Assembly (NCBI RefSeq): GCF_007827595.1
Contig: NZ_VISR01000023.1
Location: 1 to 64,000, forward strand
DNA: 64,000 nucleotides
Origin: Streptomyces sp. BK340
Lineage (GTDB): Bacteria; Actinomycetota; Actinomycetes; Streptomycetales; Streptomycetaceae
Direction of reading: 5' to 3'
Shown: positions 16,339 through 64,000 of the stretch, one piece after another
Position numbering within the stretch: position 1 is the stretch's first letter
Layout of the letters: the number at the start of each line of letters is the position of its first letter
Translations under genes and position numbers: made by a program
Notes under the pieces: model-generated
What the model was told of the DNA's origin: nothing
Seen by the model: the letters and a program-made list of their open reading frames with translations, nothing else
Database searches by the model: none

Positions 16339-16629
16339 TCCCACCCCTCTTGTGCGTCCTCCCCCGACGCCCATCGACTATAGGGTCACGATCCGTTCAC
16401 GGCCGTCAGCTCCGGGCCGCGTCGCGCGCGCCGCCGAACGGGTGACGGCTCGCCGGGTGAACTCCGCCGGGGAGACGGCATGCCCCCGCGTGCTGCCGGT
16501 TCCGGCAGGTGTCCCTCTCCGGCGCGGCACACTGCAGCCGCGGCACCGCCGCGGTGCCTTGTCAACACGGCCGGGCCGGGAGGACGGCGCCCGCGGGCGG
16601 GGGTGGCCGGGCCGCGGTACAGGAGAGTC
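16339..16629. other. Divergent intergenic region between PKS and GDSL esterase
   Basis: About 290 bases carry the promoters of the PKS (minus) and esterase (plus). On the minus strand TATAGT (complement of 16377-16382) is a -10-like hexamer about 40 bases before the PKS start, but no matching -35 is seen. The esterase side is very GC-rich with AGGAG just before its ATG at 16630. No other gene is evident. Confidence 0.4.
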
Positions 16630-41749: not shown

Positions 41750-41941
41750 CCCAGCTCGGACGGACGCCGAGGCACCGGCCGGTGGTGAGCCCCGCGCCGC
41801 GTCGCGGGGCGTGGACCGCCTGGGCCGATCCTTCTGTTCCGATCCTTCCGCCGCGAGCGTGGTCATGCATCCGGGAGGGCGCAGGGAACGGCCCACGGGT
41901 CCCGAACGCGGTCGGGCGGTAGCCTGCTCGTGAGGGCAGCC

Positions 41942-47287: not shown

Positions 47288-47531
47288 TCAGCCCATCGAG
47301 CCGATCGACTGCCAGTCGTTCCACCTCCCGTGCCACCACGCGTTGTAGACGCGCCCGTCGGTGCCCATCGCGAACAGATCCATCTGGTCGGAGTTACGGC
47401 TCTGGGCCGCGATGGGGGTGTTGGGGGCGAAGGTACGGGTGCCGATGGGCTGCCAGTCGTTCCACTCGCCGTGCCACCACGCCACGTACACCCGGCCGTC
47501 CTCCCCGACCGCGAACACGTCCATCCACCAT
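47288..47531 (-). pseudogene. Frame-displaced C-terminal repeats of the M14 peptidase
   Basis: In a different frame from the end of the peptidase gene, this stretch encodes two more copies of the C-terminal repeat: MDVFAVGEDGRVYVAWWHG and MDLFAMGTDGRVYNAWWHG units ending at a stop at 47288. The join is broken by seven extra bases, CCACCAT (47525-47531), inside GTCCAT/CTGGTCGG, where the neighbouring repeat at about 47380 reads straight through. Removing the seven bases gives one continuous frame of 984 codons including the stop. The repeats are therefore out of frame in this copy. Confidence 0.8.
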
Positions 47532-50246
47532 CTGGTCGGAGTTGCGGCTCTGTGCGGCGATGACGGTGCCCGGTGCGAAGGTGCGTGCGTAGATGGGCTG
47601 CCAGGCGTTCCAGCCCCCGTTCCACCAGGCGACCCGTGCCACTCCGTCCGCGCCGACCGCGAAGATGTCCATCCAGTCGGGGTCACGCGACAGGGCGGTG
47701 ATCGGGGTGTGCGGGACGAAGGTGTGCCCGGCGATGGGCTGCCAGTCGTTCCACCGGCCGTGCCACCACGCCACCCGTGCCAGGCCGTCCCCGCCGACCC
47801 CGAAGACGTCCATCCAGTCGGGGTCACGGGTCACGGTGGCGATGTGGCCGGCCTCAAGCGCCGCTCGGTGGCAGAAGGAGAAGAGCCCCGAGGACACGTC
47901 CCGGATGACTTCGGTCATCTCGGTCCACGTCGGCACGTACTCCGTACTGAACTCCACGAAGAATCCGTGGACCTTCTCCCTCCCGGGGTCGACCAGGTGC
48001 CGGGCGTAGGCGTAGTCGTCGACCGTGCCGGCAGTGACGTAGGTGACCACGCCCTGTTCGGGTTGGTACGCCGTGCCTCTGACGGCTCGCAAGCCGTCGG
48101 TGAAGGTCTGGGTCAGTGACTGCACGATGCCGAGGTCGGCGGCGGGAATGTACTCCCGGTAGACGGCCTCCAGGGGCCGGTCGGGATGAAACGTTCGGGT
48201 GACGCCGCGTTTCCCGTCGTACGCGGGGTTCCGGAAGTTCATGCCGGGATCGGTGATCTGGTTGTCGTCGTTGTTCCAGTTGTAGCCGAACACCTGGGTG
48301 TAACTGTGCACGTCGACCTGCCAGCGCACCCGGGGATGGGTGTCCAGCAGCCATTTGACGTTCAGGGTCTCGGCCTCGGAGAAAGGCCTCGGCCCCTGGT
48401 ACACCTCGTATTCGTTCGGGTCGGCGGAAGTGGCTCCCAGCACCTCACCGCCCTCGCTGCTGGGCGCCCAGTGTTTTCCGAGATCGAAGAGGAAGTCGTA
48501 GTTGCGGTTGAGGTCGACACCGCTCACCTCGGGCACGCCGTAGGCGGGGTTCCGGTTCTTGCGCCAGTCGCCCTTGTGGTACTGGCTGTGGTGCCGGCCG
48601 TCGGGGTTGACCATGGGGAAGACGAGGAGGTGCAGGCGTTCCATCACGGTCCGCACCTCGACGGGCGAGATCTCCCGGCCGCCGTAGCGCAGGCCCGTAC
48701 CGCCCCGGTAGGCCTGGAGGAGGTCGGCCGCGAGGTTCACCAGGATCTCGCAGCCTCCCCACTCCCGGGCGTGCTGCCCGCCGAGCAGCAGTACCGTCGG
48801 GCGGCTGTGATCCGCTCCGCCGCCCAGCCGCAGGGCGTGGCTGACACGGTGTGCTTCGGACGCGGTCCGTTCGGGGAGTTCGATGAGGCGGCAGAGATCG
48901 CCGTGGGTCGCCGCGAGGTTGCGGACGGCGGTGTCCACCTCTTCGACGTTCAGATAGAGGTCGCCCAGGCCGGTACCGCCCGGCACGCCGAGCCCGGAGG
49001 GTGCCGTACCGTCGGCGAATCGGTTGCCGCGTCCCACCTCCTTCTGCCGGTCGAGCCAGTACTGGGTGTTGTCGTCGACCACGTCGACGGTGAGGCCCCG
49101 GGCCCGGACGGCGTCCAGCCGCTCCACCGTGGCGTAGACCTCTGCGCGCGCCGTTCCGGACTCGTCCCGCTGCACGCCGCCCACCGCGCGTACCTGCGAC
49201 TCGGCGAGTGCGGCCTGCAGTCCCTCGTAGTCCGGGGCCGAGACCTGGGCGCGTTTGACGCGTAGCCATGGTGCGGCGGCGTAGCAGGAGTTGAGGTTCT
49301 GCAGCGCCCATGCCTCGCCGGGGTCGCTGCGCAGCTCGCGATAGAAGCCGGTGCCGTCGACGGCGGTGTCGATGGCCTCGGCGAAGGACCGCAGGTGTCG
49401 CAGGTAGGAGCTGAGGACGACGAGGGTGCGGGCCAGGTCCGGACGGTCTCCGCGCCGGCGGTGGATGTCACAGCACTCCCGCCCCGCCACCACCGACTGC
49501 TCATGCAGCCCCGCCGCCGAATACCGGTTCGCCAGATTCTCCAACCCCCAGGCCAGATCCGGCTCGTCCGCCAACTCCCGGTAGATCGAAACGCCTTCCT
49601 CGGCCGCCGCCACCGCCTGCGCGTACGCGGCGGTGTGAGACTCGTACGAGCTGAGCACGATCAGGGTGCGGGCGAGCTCCGGACGGTCTCCGCGCCGGCG
49701 GTGGATGTCACAGCACTCCCGCCCCGCCACCACCGACTGCTCATGCAGCCCCGCCGCCGAATACCGGTTCGCCAGATTCTCCAACCCCCAGGCCAGGCCC
49801 GGCTCGTCCGCCAACTCCCGGTAGATCGAAACGCCTTCACCGGCCGCCGCCACCGCCTGCGCGTACGCGGCGGTGTGCTGGAGGTACGCGGAGAGGGTGA
49901 TCAGGGCCTCGGCCAGTGTGGATCGGTCACCGAGTCGCCGGAGGATGTCGCAGCGCTCGCGGGCCGCCGTCACGGACTTGTCGTGCTGTCCGGCCTCCGA
50001 GTAGCGAGCGGCGACGTTCTGCAGCGCCCATGCCAACTCGGCGTCGCCGTGCAGCTCGCGGAAGATCGAGACAGCCTCTTCACCTGCCGCGACGGCCTCC
50101 GGCAGGCGGCCCGCGTTGCGCAGCAGCGCCGAGAGCCTGATCAACGCGCGGGCAAGGCCGGGCCGGTCTCCGGCCTGTCGGCAGCGCTCGACTTCCTGCT
50201 GCGCCTCCTGCAGTGGGTCGTCGGCGCCGACCCTGATTCCGGTCAT
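47394..50246 (-). CDS. TPR-M14 metallo-carboxypeptidase with C-terminal propeller-like repeats (frameshifted tail)
   Basis: The 950-residue frame starts at 50246 (GGGGG upstream). Residues 1-320 are TPR repeats, two of them near-identical copies. About 345-800 form an M14 carboxypeptidase: zinc ligands in GGQHAREWGG (His and Glu) and DVHSYTQ (His), substrate-binding NPDGRHHSQYHKGDWRKNRNP and VDLNRNYDF, and catalytic Glu in FFVEFSTEY. From about 810 come repeats of 46 residues (WMDVFGVGGDGLARVAWWHG, then WNDWQPI), resembling beta-propeller blades of PLL-type lectins. A 7-base insertion at 47525 throws the last two repeats out of frame, so the tail after NSDQM is scrambled Arg-rich sequence. 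No signal peptide. It is divergent from the subtilase operon and likely its functional partner. Confidence 0.85.
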   Translation of the reverse strand: MTGIRVGADDPLQEAQQEVERCRQAGDRPGLARALIRLSALLRNAGRLPEAVAAGEEAVSIFRELHGDAELAWALQNVAARYSEAGQHDKSVTAARERCDILRRLGDRSTLAEALITLSAYLQHTAAYAQAVAAAGEGVSIYRELADEPGLAWGLENLANRYSAAGLHEQSVVAGRECCDIHRRRGDRPELARTLIVLSSYESHTAAYAQAVAAAEEGVSIYRELADEPDLAWGLENLANRYSAAGLHEQSVVAGRECCDIHRRRGDRPDLARTLVVLSSYLRHLRSFAEAIDTAVDGTGFYRELRSDPGEAWALQNLNSCYAAAPWLRVKRAQVSAPDYEGLQAALAESQVRAVGGVQRDESGTARAEVYATVERLDAVRARGLTVDVVDDNTQYWLDRQKEVGRGNRFADGTAPSGLGVPGGTGLGDLYLNVEEVDTAVRNLAATHGDLCRLIELPERTASEAHRVSHALRLGGGADHSRPTVLLLGGQHAREWGGCEILVNLAADLLQAYRGGTGLRYGGREISPVEVRTVMERLHLLVFPMVNPDGRHHSQYHKGDWRKNRNPAYGVPEVSGVDLNRNYDFLFDLGKHWAPSSEGGEVLGATSADPNEYEVYQGPRPFSEAETLNVKWLLDTHPRVRWQVDVHSYTQVFGYNWNNDDNQITDPGMNFRNPAYDGKRGVTRTFHPDRPLEAVYREYIPAADLGIVQSLTQTFTDGLRAVRGTAYQPEQGVVTYVTAGTVDDYAYARHLVDPGREKVHGFFVEFSTEYVPTWTEMTEVIRDVSSGLFSFCHRAALEAGHIATVTRDPDWMDVFGVGGDGLARVAWWHGRWNDWQPIAGHTFVPHTPITALSRDPDWMDIFAVGADGVARVAWWNGGWNAWQPIYARTFAPGTVIAAQSRNSDQMVDGRVRGRGGRPGVRGVVARRVERLAAHRHPYLRPQHPHRGPEP
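49441..49876 (-). repeat. 240-base in-frame tandem repeat within the TPR region
   Basis: The segment from 49441 is repeated from 49681 with an exact 240-base (80-codon) period, almost identical for about 195 bases. Both copies encode GLENLANRYSAAGLHEQSVV and CCDIHRRRGDRP(E/D)LARTL. Nearby TPR units of the same protein are clearly diverged, so this pair arose recently. Confidence 0.92.
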
Positions 50247-50660
50247 GTGTTTCCCCCCGGTCCGTACGGCGGTGGTCAGTCGCCGTCCTCGCCCCGAAGG
50301 CGTGCGCCCTGGGGTGCGGTGCGGGTGTGTCGATGAGGGGGTGCCCGAAAAACCCGAACCTCACTCGGACGGTCCGCCGATGCGAGCCAAAAGGCTTCTC
50401 CGAGTGCCGAGTTGGAGAGTGAAGCGGGCATGTTAGGGCAGCGTTCAATTCCTGCACATACTTTACCGTTGCTATAACCTCGAAATGATTAACCACTTTC
50501 AGCCAATCACTCCTTTCCGGCCATCTTTCAGGGCGTCGAAGCCTGCAAATCAAAGCCACAAAAAGCCAATTGACGCATAACTTCGCGGGCCTTTACGCTG
50601 GTCGTCGACCATGGGGGATACGTGAGCGCACAATTGTGTTGCTCAGCGCGGGGGTGCCGT
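50247..50660. other. A/T-richer divergent control region of the peptidase/giant-protein cluster
   Basis: About 400 bases separate the M14-peptidase gene (minus) from the subtilase gene (plus). The stretch 50430-50600 is much richer in A/T than anything else nearby (TTTACCGTTGCTATAACCTC, AATGATTAACC, AATCAAAGCCACAAAAAGCC). It holds the promoter at 50570-50599. An upstream subtilase start (GTG 50622) would use part of this region. Confidence 0.6.
50570..50599 (+). promoter_or_regulatory. Housekeeping-type promoter for the subtilase operon
   Basis: TTGACG (50570-50575), an 18-base spacer and TACGCT (50594-50599) match the streptomycete main sigma-factor consensus. Transcription would begin near 50606. 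It should drive the whole coupled operon from the subtilase to the right edge. Confidence 0.7.
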
Positions 50661-53420
50661 GTGGTGATCAGCAAACTCGACGGAACACTTCTCTCTCGTC
50701 TCCGGACCCTGCAGGAACTCGCCCGCCGTGCCGAAGAGACCGCCGGACCAGCCGCGGCGCAGGCTGCCGAGCAACCCGTTCCGCTCGGGGACGCGGCTGT
50801 GGAAGCCGCCCGGATCGCGGCCGAGGCCGTGCAGGCCGCGGGGCAGGAGCAGGTCCGGGTCCTGGCGCACATCGAGGGGGACTTGGCGGCCGCGGAGAGC
50901 GCCGGGCTGTGGACCGAGTTCCGCACGGCGCGGGTCGCGGTCGGCAGAATCGCGGTGGCCGACCTCGAAAACGTGGCCGCGGTGACCGACGTCGTCGCGA
51001 TCCACGGTGACCAGCCGGTACGTCCGCTTCGGCCGGACCAGGCAGCGCCGGCTCATCCGGAGGCGGAGGCGGTCACCGCCTCCGGCACACCGGTCACGGA
51101 CATCGCGGACACCCACGCCGAAGCCATGCCGCCGTTGCCCGACGGGGTGACCGGGAAGGGCACACTCGTCGGCGTCATCGATTCCGGCATCGACATCTAC
51201 CACCCCGCCTTCATCAAGCCGGGCAGCAGCCCTCCCCGGACCCGGATCGTCTCACTGCTCGACTTCACGCTGCGTCAGACCATCGAGTGCACCGGGAACC
51301 CGACGGGCTCCGTGGTCCTCACCTGGCTTGCGCCCGGGGCCCAGGCGTCGGACATCACGCCGTCGCTGGCCTTCCCGCTGCAGGCGGCCACCGTGCAGAC
51401 CGCGCTCGAGGCGTTCAACTCGATCGATCCGGGTGATGTGAAGGTCACCGGTGGTCCGCTTCCCGGGACCCCCGTCGTCGTCGACTTCACAGGCCACTAC
51501 GACGGCAAGATCGTCGAGGAGATCGGCCTGCGGCCTTCCTTCACCGGAGGCGCCTCCCCGAAGATCGCCGTCCGTCGCGGTCGCGTGATCACCGAGGCGG
51601 AGATCAACGCAGCACTCCAGGCCAGCCCGCGCGTCCCCTTCGTGTCCCGCGACGGCACCGACCACGGCACCCATGTCGCGGGCATCGCCGCGGGCGTGGG
51701 GAAGGCGTCTCAGGCCTGCTGCAAGCGTGACCAGCCGATCGGTGTCGCACCGGACGCCGACCTGGCCATCGTCAGGGCCCTCACGAAAGGTGACATCGTC
51801 GCGGGTGCCACCCACGTCTTCGGTCAGTCCTGGCTCGCCCCCGGGGTGTTCAAGAAGCCCGCCGTCGTGAACGTGAGCCTCGGCTCCTTCGGCAGCGCGG
51901 GGGACGGCTCCGACCCGACCGACCTCGCACTGGACGACCTGCTGGTGGGAAGCAACGCGCGATCCATCGTGGTGGCCGCCGGGAACGAGGGCGACTCGTA
52001 TCCCATGCCGTCGCCCACCAACACCACGTTCACCGTGCCGACGTATCAGCGCGGCGGTGGGCAGCACGCGCGGGGTTTCGTCCCGGCACACGGAACGACG
52101 GTCCTCAAGCCGCTCCGCTTCTTCGTCGAGTTCGCGGACAACCGGCCGGACTGGTTCGACCTCTGGTACGAAGGCCCTGGGGAGCTCGCCGTCGATCTGT
52201 ACGGGCCGCCCAGCGCCCCGGGCGCCGTCTCGGCCACCGTGGGACCTCACCTCCACCCCCAGCTGACCCCCAGTCCGAACCCGAAGAGCACCCAGGTCGA
52301 CCTCGGCGGAACCGGGGGACATCCGCTGACGTACACGTATTACTCCGCCGTGCCGCCGAGCGGCAAGCGCCATCTCCGGCTGACGATCTCTCCGCCCGCC
52401 GGCCAGGACATCACCATGGGGTCATGGGAGATCGAGCTGCGTGAAAGGGCGGGGTTCGACACATGGTTCGACGTGTGGTTCCTGGAGGACAGGACGGATC
52501 CGTCGGGGCGGTTCGACACCGCCAACCAGGACCGCAGCAGGACCGTCACCTCTCCCGGCACCGCACGTCAGGTGATCACCGTGGGGTCCTTCAACCCCGA
52601 GGACGACCGACTCGCGCCGTACTCCAGCCGCGGCCCGACCACGGACTCGCGGTTGAAGCCGGAGCTGTGCGCCCCTGGAGAGCAGATCACCTCGGCCAAG
52701 AACGGCGGAACCCCACCCGACGGCCTCTACGCCGTCGACAGCGGCACCAGCATGGCCTCCCCGTACGTCGCCGGCGTCGTGGCCCTGATGTTCGAGGTCA
52801 ACGGCATTCTGGACCAGGGGGCCATCGTCTCCCACCTCATCAGCACCTGCGACGACCCGGTGCCTCCCGTTCCGCCGGGCCGGCTGGACAGCGGCTGGGG
52901 CAAGGGCCGGGTCAATCCCGAGAAGGCGGTGAACGCCGTCAGAGCGGCCTCCGCCGCGCGCCGCACCGTCACCCCGCACACGCCGGACGAGCCCCTCGTC
53001 CTGCCCGCCGCCGCCTACCCCGCCGCGCGTGTGCCGTTCACGACCCGGGTACGACAGGTGCGGTCCCGTATCGAGAGCACTCCAGCCGGGCGCCATCTGG
53101 CCTCGCTGGCCGCCACGCACCAGCCGGAGGTGCAACGGCTGGTCACGGGCGACCGGCGGGTGACCGTGGCCTGGCACCGGATGCACGGGCCGCTGCTCGT
53201 GCGGCTGTTGCTGTTCAGCGAGCTGTACCCGGACGCGCCCGTGCCCCGCACCCTCGGCGGGAAGTCCGTCGCCGACGGACTGGCACGGCTGCTCGAAGAG
53301 TTGCACCGTGCCGGGAGTCCCGCGCTGCGGGCCGGAATCACCGCACACCGCGCCTTCGTCCTCGCCCTGCCCGGAGCCCGGCTGTCCGAACTCGACGTAC
53401 CCACGGGCGAGGTGAGCTGA
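50661..53420 (+). CDS. Subtilisin-family (S8) serine protease with an inserted domain
   Basis: About 919 residues from the GTG at 50661 (GGGGG six bases upstream; a GTG at 50622 is the alternative). Catalytic triad: Asp in GVIDSGIDIYHP (about 174), His in DGTDHGTHVAGIA (about 335), Ser in DSGTSMASPYVAG (about 697), with oxyanion Asn in VVAAGNEGDS (about 440). Between Asp and His there is an insert of over 100 residues. Between Asn and Ser a beta-sandwich-like segment (KPLRFFVEFADNRPDWFDLWYEGPGELAVDLYGP) occurs, as in Bacteroides-type and tripeptidyl-type S8 enzymes. The N-terminal 120 residues are an alanine-rich helical region. There is no signal peptide, so it may act inside the cell or leave by another route. 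It is one base from the next gene and translationally coupled. Confidence 0.88.
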   Translation: MVISKLDGTLLSRLRTLQELARRAEETAGPAAAQAAEQPVPLGDAAVEAARIAAEAVQAAGQEQVRVLAHIEGDLAAAESAGLWTEFRTARVAVGRIAVADLENVAAVTDVVAIHGDQPVRPLRPDQAAPAHPEAEAVTASGTPVTDIADTHAEAMPPLPDGVTGKGTLVGVIDSGIDIYHPAFIKPGSSPPRTRIVSLLDFTLRQTIECTGNPTGSVVLTWLAPGAQASDITPSLAFPLQAATVQTALEAFNSIDPGDVKVTGGPLPGTPVVVDFTGHYDGKIVEEIGLRPSFTGGASPKIAVRRGRVITEAEINAALQASPRVPFVSRDGTDHGTHVAGIAAGVGKASQACCKRDQPIGVAPDADLAIVRALTKGDIVAGATHVFGQSWLAPGVFKKPAVVNVSLGSFGSAGDGSDPTDLALDDLLVGSNARSIVVAAGNEGDSYPMPSPTNTTFTVPTYQRGGGQHARGFVPAHGTTVLKPLRFFVEFADNRPDWFDLWYEGPGELAVDLYGPPSAPGAVSATVGPHLHPQLTPSPNPKSTQVDLGGTGGHPLTYTYYSAVPPSGKRHLRLTISPPAGQDITMGSWEIELRERAGFDTWFDVWFLEDRTDPSGRFDTANQDRSRTVTSPGTARQVITVGSFNPEDDRLAPYSSRGPTTDSRLKPELCAPGEQITSAKNGGTPPDGLYAVDSGTSMASPYVAGVVALMFEVNGILDQGAIVSHLISTCDDPVPPVPPGRLDSGWGKGRVNPEKAVNAVRAASAARRTVTPHTPDEPLVLPAAAYPAARVPFTTRVRQVRSRIESTPAGRHLASLAATHQPEVQRLVTGDRRVTVAWHRMHGPLLVRLLLFSELYPDAPVPRTLGGKSVADGLARLLEELHRAGSPALRAGITAHRAFVLALPGARLSELDVPTGEVS

Positions 53421-53421
53421 C

Positions 53422-56400: not shown

Positions 56401-58071
56401 GCGGCCAAACTCTCCCGGCCGGCCTACGAGGACCAGGACGCGGGCCTCGAACTCAGCGCCGCCCCCGATGCGCTGGCCACTCACCGCGCGGTACGGCGCA
56501 GCGCCCGTTACGAGGCGCACGTCTTCGACTCCCGTAAGCCCCACACCCGGCCGGCCCCGAACTCGGCGGCGGCTGCGGCGCCCCGGGCCGTCGTCGCCCC
56601 CGCAGGCCGGACCAGGCGGTTCCAGAACGTGGACGCGGCCGTGTTCCGCCGGCTCCTCGACGGCAGCAGCACCAGCCGCTCGCCCCTGTCCCGCACGGAG
56701 GCCGGCCGTCGGCAGCCGTTCGCGGCCGAGGACACCGTGCGCGTGGCGGCGCAGCGGTTCGTCATCGCGTACGTGCGCAACAACGTCCAGGCGTTCCCGC
56801 CACGCGCGGGACTGAGTGCGACCACGTTCCGGTCCCAGGCCACCGCCGAGGACGCGCTCTCCGACTGGATCGCGGCGGATCCGGGACTCTCCGGGAAGCT
56901 GCACGTCATCCGGGAGTCGGAGGTCTCCGCACCGCTCGCGGCGCCGGACACCTGGACGGCCGCCGCACCTGCGCCCTTCGCCGCGGCGGGCGGTGAGGCC
57001 GTCCGGCTCGCGGGCGGGGTCGTACTGGTCACCGGGGGACGGGGCGAGACGGGTGCGCCGGTCGCGTCCGCCGCGCTGTTCGACCCTGTCGGAGGGGTCT
57101 GGGAGGCCGCCCCGGACATGGCGGTGGCCCGTCAGGGTCACACGGTCACGCTGCTCGCCGACGGCCGGGTACTGGTCGTCGGCGGACTCGGCACCGACGG
57201 CGAGGTGCTCGGCTCGGCCGAGGTCCATGACCCGGTGACCCGCGTCTGGAGCACGGTCGCGCCGCTGCCGGGCGCCCGCTTCGGTCACAGCGCCACCCTC
57301 CTCGGCGACGGCACGGTACTGATCACCGGTGGCTCCGGGCCGCGCGGCGGGCAGGGCCACGCCTCACTGGCGTCCGCGGAACTGTTCGACCCCCGTACCG
57401 GGGCCTGGGCCGAGGGCGAGCGGCGGCCCGCTCCCATGGGCGACGCCCGGTCCGGGCACCGGGCCGTCCGCCTGACCGACGGACGGGGCCGAGTGCTGGT
57501 CGTGGGCGGTGCGCTGCACACCGGAGCGGGGCGGGCGGCCCTCGCGTACTGCGAGCTGTACGACCCCGGAAGCCGGACCTGGACGCCGGCCGGCAGTCTC
57601 GCCGTACCGCGCACCGGTCACCAGGCCACGCTGCTCTCCGACGGGACCGTCCTGGTGACCGGTGGCGACCCGGACGGCACCCCGTCCGGCGCCCGGTTCT
57701 CCACGGCGTGCCAGGTCTCCGTGGAGCAGTACCGCCCGGGCACCGACACCTGGGTCCCGTGCCCCGGCCTGCCCCTCGCCGGACGCGGCCGCCATCAGGC
57801 CGTGGCCCTGCGCAGCGGCGGGGTCCTGGTGTTCGGCGGTACGCCCCGGCGCGAGCCGGCCTCGCCCGGGCTGCGGGGCGCGGTGCTCTACGACCCGGCG
57901 GCGCGCACCTGGACGGCCACCGGAGGCCTGGCCACCGGCCGTTCGGAGGCGGTGGCCGTCGAGCTGGCCGACGGACGGGTGCTCACCACCGGCGGGCTGG
58001 TCCGCTCGGGTCCCGCCACCCCGGACGGCGGCGACGCCGTCACCGCCACCACCGAGCTCCACACGCCCTGA
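53422..58071 (+). CDS. Giant DUF6603-like protein with C-terminal kelch propeller
   Basis: 1549 residues. About 1-300: alpha-helical region (LELLAREIARALQPLEQRLGAEQRQRFFKELGLWL). About 300-450: repetitive beta segments. About 450-880: a long amphipathic beta region I recognise as DUF6603-like (LGFRFKPPNGVGLSVDAGVI, SLLVVITAEFGTGIQLGYGF, FLIGPMAKIGWGTPTLVSVS, LVLSVGGFHPSYKPPTLPFP, GSISLLFFEISADFDISWGE). About 900-1170: variable linker. About 1176-1545: six or so kelch repeats (VVLVTGG, VLVVGG, VLITGG, SAELFDP, W). The beta region resembles a barrel- or tube-forming repeat, but no signal peptide is present. The function is unknown. The gene sits between the subtilase (1-base gap) and a second kelch gene (34-base gap). 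Confidence 0.85.
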   Translation: MAAGTLELLAREIARALQPLEQRLGAEQRQRFFKELGLWLPGGLDSAAGAIGAVAVQAAGLAAAVDELTRAIEGDSTPEIVRAGTSLLGALGQVLSAIGTLGPALETTVAADQYLTDAQRGRLAAEVQQLPKRLLDHTLITYLEGRSREVVDALTLVGIVESIPAVYDPADPTRLPVRRRVLHLDRLLGLLADPAGLLRDVFRFGTPEFDGLALFRVVAEQLIARGQPYLYQGPPEQPDLPPTFDVLLTRLIVDKSTTPPSLPVETAGTSAAKLSTAVELSPLWKLALDATATFDAGLRAVVTPPLAIAFRPEGDLALSAELTLEARHADGKPMLLLGQAGGSRLELGHFALALGLHAEATAGADVTVEPSARLSLQDGHLLIDLSEADGFLRTVTRGGRIESDVDVTALWAPSSGLRLEGSGSLDLSIPVHLELGPVEVTTLYLSVGIGDGPSVPVEISGAFTAEFGPVKAAVDRVGLVVTLGFPADGGAFGPLDLGFRFKPPNGVGLSVDAGVISGGGYLYVDAERGEYAGAVELEFAGLLQLKGIGLISTRMPDRPDGFSLLVVITAEFGTGIQLGYGFTLLAVGGIIGLNRAMNLRALTEGVHSGRVESVMFPRDVVANAPRIISDLRQFFPPEDGKFLIGPMAKIGWGTPTLVSVSLGLIVEIPGNLAVLGVLRCVLPTEQLPLLVLQVQFIGAIEFDRSRLWFYARLFESRILWMTIDGGMGLYVAWGDSPDLVLSVGGFHPSYKPPTLPFPVPDRLSVDIINMPGRLIRVSGYFAITSNTVQFGAEALLRFGFEDFGIEGHVSFDALFRFSPFAFVISVSASVTLKVFGAGIFGIDLRFQLEGPSPWRAHGRGSISLLFFEISADFDISWGEEHNTTLPPVEVLALLAGEIAKTEGWETRLPTGNTRTLVTLRRLADTEDLVLHPLGTLFVRQRAVPLGVRIDRVGAQRPSDGKRFTIAPDPAGGLVRLSLPDEKFAMAQFQDMDDAAKLSRPAYEDQDAGLELSAAPDALATHRAVRRSARYEAHVFDSRKPHTRPAPNSAAAAAPRAVVAPAGRTRRFQNVDAAVFRRLLDGSSTSRSPLSRTEAGRRQPFAAEDTVRVAAQRFVIAYVRNNVQAFPPRAGLSATTFRSQATAEDALSDWIAADPGLSGKLHVIRESEVSAPLAAPDTWTAAAPAPFAAAGGEAVRLAGGVVLVTGGRGETGAPVASAALFDPVGGVWEAAPDMAVARQGHTVTLLADGRVLVVGGLGTDGEVLGSAEVHDPVTRVWSTVAPLPGARFGHSATLLGDGTVLITGGSGPRGGQGHASLASAELFDPRTGAWAEGERRPAPMGDARSGHRAVRLTDGRGRVLVVGGALHTGAGRAALAYCELYDPGSRTWTPAGSLAVPRTGHQATLLSDGTVLVTGGDPDGTPSGARFSTACQVSVEQYRPGTDTWVPCPGLPLAGRGRHQAVALRSGGVLVFGGTPRREPASPGLRGAVLYDPAARTWTATGGLATGRSEAVAVELADGRVLTTGGLVRSGPATPDGGDAVTATTELHTP

Positions 58072-58105
58072 CCCCCCACGCCCCACCACGAAGGGTGCAT
58101 CCACG

Positions 58106-59311
58106 ATGACCAGTCCCACTCCGACGGCCGTCGGCAGCTGGACGAAGACCGGCGCCCTGCCCGCGGCGGCCGGCTGGCACGGGCAGGACGACGGCGCCGT
58201 CCTGCTGAAGAACGCCAAGGGCGTGCTGCTCGTCGGCGGCTCCGACACCGCCTCGGCCGCCACCAACCGCACCAACGTCTACGACCTGACGAAGCGGGAG
58301 TGGAAGGCGGGCAGCCCGCTCGCCTTCCCGCGCCGCCTGCACACCGTGACCGTGCTCGACAGCGGCAAGGTCCTGGTCACCGGCGGGACGGGCGGCTCCG
58401 GTCCGCACCCGGCCGGGCTGGCCGCGGTGGAGCTGTACGACCCGGTGCAGGGGACCTGGAAGACGGTCGCCGGCCTGCGCGAGGCCCGGTGGGGGCATGC
58501 CGCGGTACTCCTGGAGGGCGGGAAGGTGCTGGTGACCGGCGGGTCCACCAGCCGCTCAGGGGACTCGGTCCGGGCGCTCGCCTCGGCGGAGATCTTCGAT
58601 CCGAAGGGCGACCCGGACGATCCGGACAAGGGCTCCTGGACCCCCGCCGCGCCGATGACCGACGCCCGGACCGGGCACTGCGCCCTCGTCTTCAAGGGCG
58701 GCAAGGTCCTGGTGGCCGGCGGCACCGCGCCCGTGTCCCCGACCGGCGTGGCCGCGCTCGCCTACTGCGAGGTGTACGACCCGGGTGCCGGCCCCGCGGG
58801 TGCCTGGACGCCCGTCGCGAGCCTGTCGGAGCCGAGGAGCGGCCATCGGGCGGTCCTCGCCTCCGACACGGCCGCGCTGGTCGTCGGCGGAGCGACACCG
58901 GGCACCGCGGGCGACGGCACCTACGACCCGTACGACGAACTGACCGTGGAGCGTTTCGACCTGGCGTCCGGAAAGTGGACTGCGCGGCCGTCGACGCCGG
59001 GCGGCCGGGCCCTGCACCGGGTGGTCCCGCTCGGCTCGGCGAAGTTCCTCGTCGTGGGCGGCACCACCGACGACGGCAACGGCATCGGCTACCAGAGTGC
59101 GCTGGTCTACGACGACAACGGGCCGGGCGGCTGGAGCACGGCCGCGGGCCTGGCCGAGGGCCGCTGGGCGTTCGCCGCGACCGCGCTCGACGCCGGCACG
59201 GTCCTGGTCACCGGCGGGACCCTCGCCTCGGGTGTCGCCGCGGCGGACCCGACGAAGGCCGAACTGACCATGACCACCGAGGTCTTCACGCTCACCGGAG
59301 GCGGCTCGTGA
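58106..59311 (+). CDS. Kelch-repeat beta-propeller protein
   Basis: The 401-residue protein is made almost wholly of kelch blades: WTKTGALPAAAGWHGQDDGAVLLKNAKGVLLVGGSDTASAATNRTNVYDL, then repeats with GKVLVTGG, AAVELYDPVQGTWKTVAGL, ASAEIFDP, GKVLVAGG, ALAYCEVYDPG, AALVVGG and TVLVTGG. It is a free-standing relative of the propeller at the C-terminus of the preceding giant protein, with shared phrases (AALAYCE(L/V)YDPG). Galactose-oxidase catalytic residues are not evident, so a binding or scaffold role is likelier. There is no leader peptide. Its TGA overlaps the GTG of the next gene by four bases (GTGA), giving tight translational coupling. Confidence 0.9.
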   Translation: MTSPTPTAVGSWTKTGALPAAAGWHGQDDGAVLLKNAKGVLLVGGSDTASAATNRTNVYDLTKREWKAGSPLAFPRRLHTVTVLDSGKVLVTGGTGGSGPHPAGLAAVELYDPVQGTWKTVAGLREARWGHAAVLLEGGKVLVTGGSTSRSGDSVRALASAEIFDPKGDPDDPDKGSWTPAAPMTDARTGHCALVFKGGKVLVAGGTAPVSPTGVAALAYCEVYDPGAGPAGAWTPVASLSEPRSGHRAVLASDTAALVVGGATPGTAGDGTYDPYDELTVERFDLASGKWTARPSTPGGRALHRVVPLGSAKFLVVGGTTDDGNGIGYQSALVYDDNGPGGWSTAAGLAEGRWAFAATALDAGTVLVTGGTLASGVAAADPTKAELTMTTEVFTLTGGGS

Positions 59312-62300
59312 GCGGCGGCGCCTACTCCTTCCTGCCGTGGCTGCGCTCCGGAATCGTCACCCGTGTCACCGAGGCCCCGACCGCGCCCTCGACCCGGGCG
59401 ACCATCCCGGTCAGGCTCATCGTGTCCGGGGATCCGCTCCAGGGGTCCGACCCCCTGGAGAAGCCGGTCGAGCGGCGGGTCCAGCTCTACGGTCCCGGTG
59501 ACGTCGTCGGCGTCGACCCGCGCGCGATCTCCCGCACCGAGCCCCGTCCGTGGGTCACCGATGTCGAGCCCAACTACCTTGCGCACATCGAGTTCTACGC
59601 GGAGGACTTCCTCTGGCGGTACAGCCCGGCCGCCCCCGAGGCGACCGGCCGGCTCAAGCCGTGGCTGGCGCTGGTCGTGCTGGAGGGTCCGGGCGAATCC
59701 GGTGAGCCGGGCGAGTTCACCGAAGGGACCGCTCCGGAGCGCCCGCTGCCCTTCGTCACCGTCACCGACCCCGCGCGCACCCTGCCCCACCCGGACCAGC
59801 TGGGCGCGTGGGCGCACGTGCACGTCAACGGCGAACTCGACGGAGCCGTCGTCTCGGACGAGCCGCGCATGCCGGCCGTCGTGGACGCCCTGCGCGCGGT
59901 CCTGCGCGACCGGCCGGACGACGCCTGCTGCCGGCTGCTGTGTCCCCGGCACCTGCTCCCGAACCGGCCGTACCACGCCTTCCTGGTACCGGCGTTCGAG
60001 ACCGGCCGGCTCAGCGGACTCGGCCTCCCGCCCGTCCTGCCTGCCGACGCGAAGGCCGACTTCCCGGCCTGGGGGCGCGGCTATCCGAACCGGCCCGCCG
60101 CCGGGCAACTGCCGTACTACCACCGCTGGTTCTTCGCCACGGGTGACGCAGGCGACTTCGAGTACCTGGTACGGCAGCTCGTGCCGGAGCGGCCCGATGT
60201 GCGCGTGGCCCGGCGCGATGTCGACGTGCGGCAGCCGCCGGGCGCGAATCTGCCGCCGATCGACACGCCGGCAGCGCTCGGCGGCGTCCTGAAGCTGGGC
60301 GGCGCCCTGCGGGTGCCGGGACGCGAGCGCGATGTGTGGGACAACTGGGACGGCTGGTTCCCCGCCACGGACCCCTCACAACCGCCTCCCCCGGACCACC
60401 CGCATCCCTTTCAGGAGGCGCTCGCCGGGCTGGTCAACCTGGCAGACGCCTACCTCGACACCGCCCCGGCGGAGGCGCACGCCCGGCTGGCCGCCGCCGC
60501 ACCCGACGGCGCCGCCCACCCGGTGGTGCCCGGCGCGCCCGAGGTGCGGATGCTCGCGGGTCAGGTCGACCCGGTCGTCACGCCGCCCCTGTACGGCAGG
60601 TGGCATGCGGCGACCTCGCGGTTGCTGAGGGAGCGGGACGGTACGCCGGTCCCGGAGCCACGGAGCCGGAACTGGGTGCACCGGCTGAACCTGGACCCCC
60701 GGTTCCGTATCGCGGCGAACTTCGGCACCCAGGTGGTGCAGGCACGCCAGGAGGAGTTCATGGCGGCCGCCTGGGCGCAGATCGGCGAGGTGCTGGAGGC
60801 CAACAAGCGGATCCGGCAGGCCCAGTTGGCCCGCGAGGTGGGGCACGCCCTGCAGAAGAAGCATCTCGATCCGCCCGCCACGCCGGCCGGCGGTACCGCC
60901 TTCGCACCTGCCGCCCGGTCCGGCCGCGCGCTGCGGCTGACCGCCCCGGCGGGTGCCCGTGTCACACCGGAGCCGACGGGCGCGGCGCTGTTCGCCGCCG
61001 CGGGCCAGAACCTGGCCGTCGGCTTCCAGCTCGCCACCAGCCGCGTCGGCTCCGCGCCGGTGTCGCCCGCGATGCGGCGGATCACCCGGCCCGGCTCCCG
61101 GCTCATGCGGACGCTGGCCTTCGGCACGGCGTCCCCGGACGAACTGCCGGAGAAGATGGACCGGGACACCGGGGCGGTCACACCGGCGCCCGTGAAGACC
61201 ACACCGCCGGCCGTGGTCACCGCGCAGCGGCTGGAGGACCTCCTGCGCCCCCAGGCGCCGACCCGGGCGGCCGCCGACGACCCCGACGAGATCAAGCGGC
61301 TGAGGACCAGCGCCCAGTTCGTCGTCACCCTCCCCCGCGAGGGCGTCGTGCCCCCGGCCGGCGGCGACCACGACAGCCCCGAGGGCGCACGGTTCAAGGA
61401 CGGTCTGCGGGACCTCTACCGGGCACGCGCGGACGCGGAGGCGGGCGCCAGGGCCAGGGAGCGTGACCCGCTCGGCGTGGACCTGACCGTCTCCCGCCTG
61501 CTCACCGGACTCCGCTCCGACCTCACCGTGCCCAGGGACCTGTTCCACTCGGCCCGCGTTCCTGAGCGGCTGCGGAGTTTCGCCGACCGGTTCCTGGAGG
61601 TGATGGCGTACCCGGTGATCGACCTGCCGATGTTCCAGTCCCTGATCGACATGTCGGTGGACACCTTCGTGCCGAACCTCCGGATGGTCCCGCCGAACTC
61701 GGTCACCCTGCTGGAGACCGACCAGGAGTTCATCGAGTCGTTCCTGGTCGGGCTCAACCACGAGATGGCGCGTGAGCTGCTGTGGCGCGAGTACCCCACC
61801 GACCAACGGGGCTCGCCCTTCCGGCAGTTCTGGGACCCGCGCCCCGCGCTGGCGCTGCCCGGCGAGAGCGCCGAGCAGCGCCGGGAACGCCTCTACGACA
61901 TCACGCCCGTCGCCGGCTGGGACCCCGGCTCTCGGCTCGGCACGCACGACAACCGCGACCAGGGCGTGCAGGAGCAGGAACTCGTCCTCGTGATCCGCGG
62001 CGACCTGCTGAAGAAGTACCCCACCGCGGCGATCTACGCCCACGCCGCCGACTGGGACCGGGACGAGGACGGCACACCGCGCCCGGAGCGGGAACGGGTG
62101 CTCGCCGCGTTCCCGGACTCCGAGCACCCGCCGCCGGACAAGGTGAGGCTGCCGATCTACGAGGCGAAGGTCGAGCCGGACATCACCCTGCTCGGGTTCG
62201 ACCTGACGGCCGAGGCGGCACGCGGGCGTGTCCCGGACGACCCGGGCTGGTTCTTCGTCATCAAGGAGCGGCCCGGCGATCCACGGTTCGGGGCCGACGA

Positions 62301-62589
62301 GGAGGGCCAGGGCACCGATGCCGTCGAGGTGTGGAACGACCTGTCCTGGAACGACATCGACCCGGGCGGAACCCGGTTCATCAGCCTCGACCCGGCCGTG
62401 CGGCAGCCGCTGGCGCCGTTCGACGGGTCCGAGGACGACCAGGAGAAGGAGGAGCAGCGCCGCGAGGACGCGTTCCTGCCGCGCTGGGACGAGACGCTCG
62501 GCTCGGCGGACATCGCCTACATGCTCTTCCAGGCTCCCGTACTGATCGCCGTTCACGCGCAGGAGATGCTGCTCGATGCCGCTGAGTGA
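59308..62589 (+). CDS. Large cytoplasmic-looking protein of unknown family (1093 residues)
   Basis: I do not recognise this family. The GTG start overlaps the kelch stop. The N-terminus is YSFLPWLRSGIVTRV, followed by a beta-rich domain (TIPVRLIVSGD, VQLYGPGDVVGVDPRAI, NYLAHIEFYAEDFLWRYSPAAP, LKPWLALVVLE). The middle is proline- and Arg-rich with helices (RNWVHRLNLDPRFRIAANFGTQVVQARQEEFMAAAWAQIGEVLEANKRIRQAQLAREVGHAL). The C-terminal third is rich in conserved-looking motifs: FIESFLVGLNHEMARELLWREYPTDQRGSPFRQFWD, LVIRGDLLKKYPTAAIYAHAA, WFFVIKERPGDPRFG, DLSWNDI. There is no signal peptide or membrane helix. It overlaps the next gene by 14 bases, so production of the two is coupled. Confidence 0.85.
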   Translation: MSGGAYSFLPWLRSGIVTRVTEAPTAPSTRATIPVRLIVSGDPLQGSDPLEKPVERRVQLYGPGDVVGVDPRAISRTEPRPWVTDVEPNYLAHIEFYAEDFLWRYSPAAPEATGRLKPWLALVVLEGPGESGEPGEFTEGTAPERPLPFVTVTDPARTLPHPDQLGAWAHVHVNGELDGAVVSDEPRMPAVVDALRAVLRDRPDDACCRLLCPRHLLPNRPYHAFLVPAFETGRLSGLGLPPVLPADAKADFPAWGRGYPNRPAAGQLPYYHRWFFATGDAGDFEYLVRQLVPERPDVRVARRDVDVRQPPGANLPPIDTPAALGGVLKLGGALRVPGRERDVWDNWDGWFPATDPSQPPPPDHPHPFQEALAGLVNLADAYLDTAPAEAHARLAAAAPDGAAHPVVPGAPEVRMLAGQVDPVVTPPLYGRWHAATSRLLRERDGTPVPEPRSRNWVHRLNLDPRFRIAANFGTQVVQARQEEFMAAAWAQIGEVLEANKRIRQAQLAREVGHALQKKHLDPPATPAGGTAFAPAARSGRALRLTAPAGARVTPEPTGAALFAAAGQNLAVGFQLATSRVGSAPVSPAMRRITRPGSRLMRTLAFGTASPDELPEKMDRDTGAVTPAPVKTTPPAVVTAQRLEDLLRPQAPTRAAADDPDEIKRLRTSAQFVVTLPREGVVPPAGGDHDSPEGARFKDGLRDLYRARADAEAGARARERDPLGVDLTVSRLLTGLRSDLTVPRDLFHSARVPERLRSFADRFLEVMAYPVIDLPMFQSLIDMSVDTFVPNLRMVPPNSVTLLETDQEFIESFLVGLNHEMARELLWREYPTDQRGSPFRQFWDPRPALALPGESAEQRRERLYDITPVAGWDPGSRLGTHDNRDQGVQEQELVLVIRGDLLKKYPTAAIYAHAADWDRDEDGTPRPERERVLAAFPDSEHPPPDKVRLPIYEAKVEPDITLLGFDLTAEAARGRVPDDPGWFFVIKERPGDPRFGADEEGQGTDAVEVWNDLSWNDIDPGGTRFISLDPAVRQPLAPFDGSEDDQEKEEQRREDAFLPRWDETLGSADIAYMLFQAPVLIAVHAQEMLLDAAE

Positions 62590-64000
62590 CGACTTTCCCG
62601 TGCTGCTCGGACCGGTCCGGGTGGAGACCCGGTTCACCGAGAGCGAGCTGCTGGTACGGGTGTTTCCCGACGAGTGGTGCGTCTCCACCGAGGAGACGGT
62701 GCCGAGCGACGCGGAGTTCGGGGCGCTGTCGGCGTACTGGACGGCGCTGTGGCGGGCCGCGGGGCGGCAGAGCGCCGAACATGCCGCCTGGCAGGAGCTG
62801 ACCGGCCGCGTCCCGGTCGGCCGGGCCGCCTGGCTCACCGACACCTACCGGCCCGCCAACCCGGACGACCGGCCCGCCCAGGCGCAGGCCGAGACGGCGG
62901 TCCTGGTGATCGTCAGCGAGGCCGCGCTGCCCGCCGCCGACCGGCAGCCCGCCGTCACGTACTGGACGTCGGTCTGGCGGGCCCACGGTGACCGGTCCCG
63001 GCTGCGGGCCGCCGACGTCGCGCTGCTCGCCGCCGTGGGCGCCGGCCGCGCCGACGCCATCCGCAGCCGGCTGCCGTCCGGGATCGACGCGGCGCCGGTC
63101 ACACCGTACGAGGGTGTCGTGGTCGCCTTCCTGGTCCTGCCCCGGCCGCAGACGGCCGCCGACTCCTGGACCAGGCCCGCCAGGGCGGCGCTGCTGCCGG
63201 ACCGGTTCACGGTGTTCGGGTACGTCGGCGACGACCTGGTGCTGACCGCCGACGGTGCTCCGCTCGCCCGGCAGGAGCTGGCCGTCAGCCCCGACCCGGG
63301 CGAGCAAAACCAGCTGAGACTCGACGAGAGCACCGGCGTGCTGAACGTGCCCGACGAGCTGCTGTGGCTGGTCGACTTCCGCGAGGCCGTCCGGATCGGC
63401 ATGGGACTGAGGATCCCGCTCGACGAACGGACCCAAAACGGCCTCGACCGGCTCGTCGTACTCGGCCTGCGCGAGGGGCCGACGGCCGGGGGGAGTGCCC
63501 GGGATCTGGCAGATCTGATCACTCGTCAGGTTCGCAGCTCGACCGGGTTCGCCTTGCTGCCGCAGGGTACTCCGACCATCAACACCGGGCAGGCGCCCGC
63601 CGGCCAGGACGAGAGGACGGCGGCCGTGGCCGGGCTGCGCAGCCTCCGGCAGAGCTTCGCCGCCGCACCCGGCGACTGGCGCGGCCGCACCGACGGGCAG
63701 TGGTTCGCCGAACTCCTCGGCCTCGACCCGGCCGTGCTCAGCGGGGTGCCGAACGCCGACGGCACCGATCAGCGCGACGCCCGCGCCGCGCACACCGCGC
63801 TGTGGCCCGCGACCTGGGGAGCGTTCCTGGAGGGCGCGCTGCACCCGGTCCTCCCGGCGGAGGCGGTGGCCGAGACCCGCGAGTTCTTCCTGCGATACGT
63901 CTCCGGGCGCGGCCCGGTCCCCGCCGTCAAGGTGGGCCGACAGCCCTACGGAATCCTGCCGACCACCGCCTTCTCCCAGCTCCGGTGGCCGGACTCGGCA
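62576..64000 (+). CDS. Start of a large protein of unknown family (runs off the right edge)
   Basis: The ATG at 62576 lies inside the end of the previous gene, and the frame stays open for 475 codons to the window edge. The N-terminus is PLSDDFPVLLGPVRVETRFTESELLVRVFPDEWCVSTEE, then YWTALWRAAG, and later LNVPDELLWLVDFREAVRIGMGLRIPLDERTQNGLDRLVVLGLREG, QWFAELLGLDPAVLSGV and VKVGRQPYGILPTTAFSQLRW. It is soluble-looking and rich in Trp and Arg. I do not recognise a named domain. The strong coupling to the 1093-residue gene suggests the two proteins form a complex or successive layers of one assembly. The 3' end lies outside. Confidence 0.8.
   Translation, partial: MPLSDDFPVLLGPVRVETRFTESELLVRVFPDEWCVSTEETVPSDAEFGALSAYWTALWRAAGRQSAEHAAWQELTGRVPVGRAAWLTDTYRPANPDDRPAQAQAETAVLVIVSEAALPAADRQPAVTYWTSVWRAHGDRSRLRAADVALLAAVGAGRADAIRSRLPSGIDAAPVTPYEGVVVAFLVLPRPQTAADSWTRPARAALLPDRFTVFGYVGDDLVLTADGAPLARQELAVSPDPGEQNQLRLDESTGVLNVPDELLWLVDFREAVRIGMGLRIPLDERTQNGLDRLVVLGLREGPTAGGSARDLADLITRQVRSSTGFALLPQGTPTINTGQAPAGQDERTAAVAGLRSLRQSFAAAPGDWRGRTDGQWFAELLGLDPAVLSGVPNADGTDQRDARAAHTALWPATWGAFLEGALHPVLPAEAVAETREFFLRYVSGRGPVPAVKVGRQPYGILPTTAFSQLRWPDSA

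What the first reader, a model, noticed from the sequence alone, without database searches (positions are those of the whole stretch)
47288..64000. A cluster of two peptidases and four large beta-rich or unknown proteins that looks like one undescribed system
The sequence shows an M14 carboxypeptidase with TPRs and lectin-like repeats divergent from a plus-strand operon (subtilase, DUF6603-kelch giant, kelch, 1093-residue unknown, another large unknown). Coupling is extreme: a 1-base gap, a 34-base gap, a 4-base overlap and a 14-base overlap. None of the proteins has a signal peptide or membrane segment. Known from families: kelch and TPR modules build assemblies, and S8/M14 enzymes process proteins. 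Inference: the cluster makes a large protein particle or surface/released complex whose parts are matured by the two proteases, perhaps acting on other cells.
Basis: partly seen in the sequence, partly recalled or inferred. Interest (0 to 1): 0.9.

Follow-up and report, generated by a model that had tools for sequence, protein, structure and literature searches.

The report
Widespread protein complex with swappable enzyme
This Streptomyces-type gene cluster is one copy of an apparently undescribed four-gene module found in many bacteria and some salt-loving archaea, usually next to an interchangeable enzyme (protease, lipase, phosphatase or oxidase), which suggests a protein complex that carries a swappable weapon or tool.

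Summary
DUF6603-P5-P6-P7 is a conserved module. Over 92 loci (nine bacterial phyla, plus haloarchaea and others on plasmids), where enough sequence is in view, 83 of 86 have DUF6603 upstream of P5, 90 of 90 have P6 and 84 of 85 have P7; all 79 with all four keep the order. P5, P6 and P7 have no significant match in Pfam, NCBIfam, PHROGs or PADLOC.

The main new finding is an exchangeable enzyme slot before DUF6603: S1, S8 or M64 protease, PhoD phosphatase, phospholipase D, tyrosinase or copper oxidase (61 of 72 slot genes classified; at least 27 class changes on a quick P5 tree). All 17 S1 and 7 of 13 S8 slot proteases share a new C-terminal domain; its 35 matches in 28 genomes or records all lie at this locus.

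The idea that the peptidases mature a particle is unlikely. I favour a lipid- or membrane-engaging complex that carries a swappable enzyme in biological conflict. Complex formation, location and target are not shown.

The parts
47288..50246 (-). M14 zinc carboxypeptidase with N-terminal TPRs and C-terminal lectin-like repeats; reading frame shifts near 47600. Accessory, not core; divergent from an S8 slot gene here, in G033 and in L066
   Evidence: Pfam M14 1.3e-38 and TPR; lectin NCBIfam 4e-14, below cut-off; M14 peptidase domain at 1 of 92 loci, L066, and in G033, one open frame of 1169 aa
50622..53420 (+). S8 subtilase in the exchangeable enzyme slot; Asp187, His348 and Ser710 motifs present
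   Evidence: Pfam 3.7e-39; motifs; slot counts
52977..53417 (+). C-terminal domain of the slot protease, shared with trypsin-like slot proteases and stand-alone ~138-aa ORFs; proposed docking domain
   Evidence: Profiles; whole-genome search (35 of 35 matches at the locus); no Pfam match in the window copy, none in PDB
53422..58071 (+). DUF6603 protein: predicted N-terminal helical bundle, about 40 antiparallel strands, C-terminal kelch domain. Core
   Evidence: Pfam DUF6603 1.6e-122 at 431-994, kelch at about 1194-1473; model; strand alternation
58106..59311 (+). Separate kelch protein (401 aa); mostly an Actinomycetota feature
   Evidence: Pfam; kelch hits at 39 of 46 Actinomycetota loci and 1 of 34 others
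59308..62589 (+). P5 (1093 aa), core; predicted N-terminal Ig/CopC-like sandwich, no credible match for the rest
   Evidence: No match; model pLDDT 86; fold searches; 479 related stretches
62576..64000 (+). Start of P6 (1752 aa in all, to contig position 67834), core; followed outside the window by P7 (67879-69768), core
   Evidence: P6 in 90 of 90 and P7 in 84 of 85 loci with enough downstream sequence; no significant family match

Best explanation
DUF6603, P5, P6 and P7 form a four-protein core complex that carries an exchangeable enzyme encoded next to it. Shown: the four genes are kept together in fixed order across phyla, the neighbouring enzyme belongs to at least seven unrelated classes, and S1 and about half of the S8 slot proteases share a C-terminal domain that was found only at this locus in the genomes searched. 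Predicted from models and sequence: DUF6603 is one very long amphipathic beta sheet with a hydrophobic face, and P5 of many non-actinobacterial lineages has a membrane-type hydrophobic stretch. Inferred: the core binds lipid or membrane, holds the enzyme (by the C-terminal domain for those proteases, by other means for other enzymes) and deploys it against a target in biological conflict, either released against other cells or at the cell's own membrane against an invader. In this copy the enzyme is a subtilase; the kelch and lectin parts may add binding.
For: Module: 83 of 86, 90 of 90, 84 of 85; order kept in 79 of 79 loci with all four. In a draw of 296 Actinomycetota genomes the 6 with P5 are all among the 9 with DUF6603 and the 7 with P7. 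P6 and P7 are one open frame in two genomes. Exchange: seven enzyme classes in 61 of 72 slots; at least 27 class changes on a 62-row P5 tree; against close relative G033 the slot S8 is 57% identical while DUF6603, kelch, P5, P6, P7 and M14 are 88-93%. Docking domain: 35 of 35 matches at the locus, 28 genomes or records. Enzymes look competent: HExxH in 19 of 19 M64, GDSG in 16 of 17 first S1 genes. Lipid or membrane: strand alternation 1.54 against 0.60 shuffled, 0 of 2000; fold matches include ushers, porins, LptD, ApoB100; hydrophobic stretch in 19 of 92 P5. Accessory pattern: 4 of 61 genomes, its own included; 13 plasmid records; some phyla split in the P5 tree.
Against: No direct evidence of complex formation, docking, location or target. 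The C-terminal domain was not found in M64, PhoD, PLD, tyrosinase, oxidase or the unclassified slot proteins tested and is absent from 6 of 13 slot S8 proteins, so docking by it is not general; it is not homologous to any core protein. In the high-GC genomes only 150 of up to 341 first-look candidates were scored, so weak copies elsewhere could be missed. Core proteins lack export signals by a simple test: 0 of 92 P5, 0 of 91 P6, 0 of 84 P7, 1 of 86 DUF6603. DUF6603 fold matches have rmsd 8-13 A and TM-scores of about 0.1-0.3; the model's pTM is 0.48. The P5 hydrophobic stretch is absent from all 46 Actinomycetota loci. L061 and L104 have P5-P6-P7 without DUF6603 upstream. Enzyme class and phylum are both clustered on the P5 trees more than in shuffles, so much inheritance is vertical, and the tree has long branches that meet.
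Confidence: 0.45

Rival explanations
1. A purely intracellular defence system: the complex sits in the cytoplasm or on the inner face of the membrane and unleashes its enzyme on the cell's own components when an invader is sensed.
For: No signal peptides in core proteins by a simple test; 4 of 72 slot proteins flagged for a signal-like N-terminus, of which by eye only L091 and L119 convince; K/R in the 19 P5 hydrophobic stretches are denser in the 12-residue flanks (26 and 34 in all) than inside (35 over much longer stretches), as in an inner-membrane hairpin; trypsin and subtilase domains are known in bacterial conflict systems (passages of PMC7159879); patchy distribution.
Against: No NTPase in the core; no PADLOC match for P5, P6, P7 or DUF6603; tyrosinase, galactose-oxidase-like, PhoD and M64 enzymes and VCBS, lamin-tail, surface and peptidoglycan-binding accessories are usually extracytoplasmic (general knowledge).
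Confidence: 0.28
2. An extracytoplasmic enzyme platform for nutrition or surface chemistry: the core displays one secreted-type enzyme to degrade or modify polymers, without a role in conflict.
For: Enzyme classes are typical degradative or cross-linking ones; two slot proteins have signal-like N-termini, L091 lipoprotein-like and L119; kelch, lectin and surface-type accessories.
Against: No export signal on the core; patchy distribution with repeated enzyme swaps is unusual for basic nutrition.
Confidence: 0.17
3. One reading: S8 and M14 process the large proteins so that they mature into a particle or surface complex.
For: Tight linkage in the window and in G033; M14 also divergent from an S8 slot gene in L066; catalytic motifs of S8 and M14 present.
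Against: The slot can hold PhoD, PLD, tyrosinase or copper oxidase with the same core; the M14 peptidase domain was seen at 1 of 92 loci.
Confidence: 0.07
4. Chance neighbourhood of unrelated genes.
For: None found for the core; the upstream regulator may be a chance neighbour.
Against: Fixed order in nine phyla and in haloarchaea; linked presence in the 296-genome draw.
Confidence: 0.01

Closest known systems
Trypsin/caspase/EAD conflict systems of multicellular bacteria (eLife 2020;9:e52696, PMC7159879; passages seen)
   Same: Constant core with interchangeable effectors; proteases tied in by small non-catalytic domains; some operons couple trypsin-like and S8 peptidases.
   Different: Those have NTPase cores and homotypic EAD pairs; here no NTPase was found in the core and the docking-type domain is not homologous to any core protein. 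DUF6603 is not mentioned in that paper's main text.
IetAS (S8 protease plus AAA ATPase defence pair; name from PADLOC and NCBIfam, the pairing is recalled)
   Same: S8 protease; a PADLOC IetS model matches the window S8 weakly (1.8e-7).
   Different: No AAA partner in the operon; the S8 is replaced by unrelated enzymes elsewhere; NCBIfam's model of this kind scores far below its cut-off (12.8 against 900 bits).
Bridge-like/AsmA-TamB lipid transfer proteins and outer-membrane barrels and ushers
   Same: Long amphipathic antiparallel beta sheet; Foldseek hits to SDBC, FimD/PapC ushers, ApoB100 and LptD.
   Different: No Pfam match to such families, no signal peptide, found in a Streptomyces-type bacterium without outer membrane (general knowledge), poor superposition (rmsd about 11 A).
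Contractile injection systems and phage tails
   Same: Multi-gene module of large proteins with variable cargo.
   Different: P5 and P7 match no PHROG and P6 only an unknown one at 0.078; no relative of P5 in IMG/VR viral contigs.

Membership tests
EAD/trypsin NTP-dependent conflict systems | NTPase (vWA-MoxR, GTPase, STAND) core component | tested here: not met
   Pfam finds no NTPase in the window operon, P6 or P7. A BTAD-AAA regulator lies beside some other loci.
EAD/trypsin NTP-dependent conflict systems | Effector EAD paired with a homologous EAD on a core protein | tested here: not met
   Slot C-terminal domain is not EAD by Pfam (1 of 21 members to EAD1, at 0.028) and has no homologue in DUF6603, P5, P6 or P7 (hhalign).
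Known anti-phage defence systems (PADLOC 2023) | Core proteins match a known system's models | tested here: not met
   No match for DUF6603, P5, P6, P7; S8 matches subtilase and IetS models only.
IetAS | Adjacent AAA ATPase partner | tested here: not met
   No AAA gene in the operon.
Phage tail or contractile injection system | Homology of the core proteins to phage structural families | tested here: not met
   No PHROG for P5 or P7; P6 0.078 to an unknown family; the kelch part of DUF6603 and the S8 match kelch-type (2.6e-50, also a virion protein family at 1.5e-7) and protease PHROGs.
Outer-membrane beta barrel or usher | Export signal | tested here: not met
   N-terminal hydrophobic stretch in 1 of 86 DUF6603 proteins, none in the window copy; simple hydropathy test only.
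Outer-membrane beta barrel or usher | Closed transmembrane barrel fold | tested here: inconclusive
   Z up to 14.5 but rmsd 11.8 A over 276 residues.
Bridge-like/AsmA lipid transfer proteins | Chorein/AsmA/TamB domains | tested here: not met
   No such Pfam match in the DUF6603 protein at E up to 1.
Bridge-like/AsmA lipid transfer proteins | Open hydrophobic beta groove | tested here: inconclusive
PF20248 DUF6603 | Profile match over the curated cut-off | tested here: met
   410 bits against 27.

The most novel reading that the evidence does not exclude
A new class of enzyme-delivery particle shared by Bacteria and Archaea: a lipid- or membrane-engaging assembly of four large proteins, unrelated to phage tails, that carries one swappable degradative enzyme (protease, lipase, phosphatase or oxidase) to other cells.
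Probability: 0.25. Interest if true: 0.95.

Novelty: categorically new. Interest (0 to 1): 0.78.

Why it matters
Three large, widely conserved protein families without annotation turn out to belong to one module, with 479 related stretches among about 85,000 species genomes (stretches, not counted as distinct loci). The exchangeable enzyme slot makes function testable: one core and many enzymes. If it is a delivery or defence machine it would be a new kind of it, and the locus-specific protease domain gives a handle for recognising its cargo.

Tried and rejected
Profiles against PDB sequences: nothing for P5 and P7; for P6 and DUF6603 only helical bundles and coils over helical stretches (best 5e-6 for P6, 0.0064 for DUF6603), which I treat as chance. 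P5, P6 and P7 are not related to each other by profile comparison. The P5 model had no match at E <= 0.001 among viral structures or PDB; its best VIA Z was 4.8 to CopC/PcoC over 69-279. Absence of a listed fold does not exclude it.

A first count of M14 neighbours ('6 of 92') was wrong: that profile had drifted to the TPR part alone. Recounted with the peptidase domain it is 1 of 92 (L066). The other core profiles still span nearly the whole protein.

A virus or phage origin was considered: one unannotated record labelled 'UNVERIFIED Bacteriophage sp.' holds P5, P6, P7 and the end of DUF6603, and also a member of the gene cluster that includes a BTAD-AAA regulator, so I read it as probably bacterial DNA; not tested further. 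One search (patterns in IMG/VR) found no relative.

A docking domain common to all slot classes was looked for and not found. Slot genes of L091 and L120 share only a weak stretch (3e-4). A second DUF6603 locus type (G261, G303, G318) lacks P6 and P7, but its next protein resembles the N-terminal part of P5 (E 5e-13, 5e-4 and 2e-3). The beta-lactamase-like gene before G261's DUF6603 is below Pfam's cut-off (17.3 against 22.7 bits) and is not counted.

The promoter and terminator scan found nothing. Literature: DUF6603 0 papers, PF20248 0; combined-term searches gave no relevant listing; one search listed lipid-transfer papers (listing only). The library holds open-licence papers only.

Rows dropped: slot counts leave out 7 of 92 loci where no DUF6603 gene was picked; 13 of 85 had no slot gene found, of which L072, L073 and L076 carry S8-profile ORFs that other picks overlapped, and L079, L105, L108 and L127 begin at a contig end. 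One search kept 80 of 479. Of 13 plasmid records with a P5 match I fetched 11; two further S. longwoodensis records were left out.

Full report
What is there. The window is positions 1-64000 of a contig of 183,722 bases in a genome of 10.3 Mb. The described genes are real and their spacing is as stated. Reading on, the plus-strand operon is S8, DUF6603-kelch, kelch, P5 (1093 aa), P6 (1752 aa), P7 (629 aa); the next gene is a GH5 cellulase. P5, P6 and P7 have no significant match in Pfam, NCBIfam, PHROGs or PADLOC (best P7 NCBIfam 0.0086 at 14 of 812 bits, best P6 Pfam 0.032), nor among solved structures apart from helical-bundle matches to P6.

It is one module. I first found DUF6603, P5, P6 and P7 in one order in other actinobacterial genomes. 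In a draw of 296 Actinomycetota genomes (same handles in three searches), DUF6603 is in 9, P5 in 6 and P7 in 7; all 6 P5 genomes are among the 9 and the 7 (in G263 P5 and P7 lie on different contigs). By hand, the hypergeometric chance of 6 of 6 falling in 9 of 296 is about 1e-10, though genomes are related. The seventh P7 genome, G326, has P7 fragments on a contig of 3,170 bases. The three DUF6603 genomes without P5-P7 (G261, G303, G318) hold a second arrangement whose next protein resembles the P5 N-terminus. A scan of about 85,000 species genomes gave 479 related stretches; the best 80 loci kept are 46 Actinomycetota, 16 Bacteroidota, 5 Chloroflexota, 4 Pseudomonadota, 3 Cyanobacteriota, 3 Acidobacteriota and 1 each of three more phyla. 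Plasmid records add haloarchaea, Gemmatirosa, Rhizobium and others. Over 92 loci (80, plus 11 plasmid and 1 phage-labelled), with enough sequence in view, DUF6603 lies upstream of P5 in 83 of 86, P6 downstream in 90 of 90 and P7 in 84 of 85, all on one strand; all 79 loci with all four have the same order. Of the three DUF6603 misses, L068 begins inside kelch ORFs and L061 and L104 lack it in the stretch held. P6 and P7 are one open frame in G016 and G250.

The enzyme slot. Of 85 loci with a picked DUF6603 gene, 72 have a same-strand gene directly before it. Local profile classes: 19 M64, 17 trypsin-like S1, 13 S8, 5 PhoD, 3 phospholipase D, 2 copper oxidase, 2 tyrosinase, 11 unclassified. Pfam on the same 72 gives M64 19, S8 13, PhoD 4, PLD 3, tyrosinase 2, galactose-oxidase-like 2 and Trypsin_2 3; most S1 calls thus rest on local profiles seeded from weak Pfam trypsin matches, supported by a GDSG motif in 16 of 17. 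M64 proteins have HExxH in 19 of 19. The window S8 keeps Asp187, His348 and Ser710; most slot S8 proteins do, with variants in L067 and L116. On a 62-row P5 tree the slot class needs at least 27 changes (least possible 6; shuffled mean 35.4, none of 200 as low), so class is partly inherited; S1 alone is no more clustered than chance (15 against 15.1). That tree is a quick one with long branches (L041, L044, L051). Against close relative G033 the slot S8 is 57% identical while the other six genes are 88-93%. The slot enzyme can also lie after P7 (S8 in Nocardia L047; M64-cluster gene in L104).

A locus-specific protease domain. The last ~145 residues of the window S8 recur at the C-terminus of all 17 S1 and 7 of 13 S8 slot proteases and as stand-alone ~138-aa ORFs. 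Searched over 26 genomes and 2 plasmid records there are 35 matches in 23 of the 28; I compared each position by eye with the locus ranges and all 35 fall inside, and matches per genome equal the copies at the locus. The five others have M64, PhoD or unclassified slots. The profile was built from these loci, so presence is by construction; absence elsewhere is the finding, with the limit that in large high-GC genomes only 150 first-look candidates were scored. The window copy has no Pfam match, and over 21 members there are only scattered weak hits. The domain was not found in the other enzyme classes and is unlike any core protein.

Structure and location. P5 models well (pLDDT 86, pTM 0.75): an Ig/CopC-like sandwich (Z 4.8) and no other credible match. 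DUF6603 models as a helical bundle plus about 40 antiparallel strands (pLDDT 80, pTM 0.48). Its 28 longer strands alternate strongly between hydrophobic and polar residues (1.54 against 0.60; 0 of 2000 shuffles). Fold matches are barrels, ushers, LptD and ApoB100, at rmsd too high to claim a barrel. In 19 of 92 P5 proteins a central site carries a hydrophobic stretch of 25-59 residues, mostly hairpin-like: 0 of 46 Actinomycetota, 18 of 34 others in the genome set, plus Gemmatirosa. By a simple hydropathy test core proteins lack signal peptides; DUF6603 reaches a high 19-residue hydropathy in 40 of 86 and P6 in 3 of 91, which for DUF6603 fits beta strands. I infer a lipid- or membrane-associating complex but cannot tell inside from outside.

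Accessories. Kelch hits lie near 39 of 46 Actinomycetota loci and 1 of 34 others; in L083 and L086 the hit is the copper-oxidase slot gene itself. The M14 peptidase domain was found at 1 of 92 loci, L066, on the minus strand directly before the S8 slot gene, and in the window and G033 in the same place. So M14 may be a rare partner of S8-type slots; the view before the slot gene is short (median 2.7 kb, 14 of 72 under 1.5 kb), so it may be undercounted.

Known or new. No held paper names DUF6603 or PF20248, and combined searches found no description; the library covers open-licence papers only. The nearest concept is the modular conflict systems of PMC7159879 (passages seen), whose NTPase core and paired EAD domains are not met. 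I rate it categorically new as a module, with the mechanism uncertain.

Noticed in passing
window 47288-50246: The M14 gene's reading frame shifts within the lectin-like repeats near 47600; relative G033 has one open frame of 1169 aa.
   Followed up: partly
window 8272-16374: 2700-aa minus-strand ORF that looks by eye like a nonribosomal peptide synthetase; not searched.
   Followed up: no
window 41930-45166: AfsR/SARP-like regulator ORF (judged by eye) just before the cluster; genes of the cluster that includes a BTAD-AAA regulator lie near loci L048, L049, L106, L107, L112, so a regulatory link is possible.
   Followed up: partly
L031 (G261), L034 (G318), L040 (G303): Second DUF6603 locus type without P6 and P7, with a P5-N-like protein and another large protein.
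   Followed up: partly
L048 (MT835531.1): An unannotated record labelled bacteriophage holds part of the module; probably mislabelled bacterial DNA.
   Followed up: partly
L118, L124, L125: Bacteroidota loci have a stand-alone copy of the protease C-terminal domain directly before the trypsin-like slot gene.
   Followed up: partly
L044:5200-9900: PhoD-like slot protein of 1566 aa with a peptidoglycan-binding domain on a Streptomyces longwoodensis plasmid.
   Followed up: no
L066:2-1654: M14 peptidase gene on the minus strand next to an S8 slot gene in Amycolatopsis xylanica, the same layout as in the window.
   Followed up: partly
L007:7375-9282: GH5 cellulase directly after the operon.
   Followed up: no
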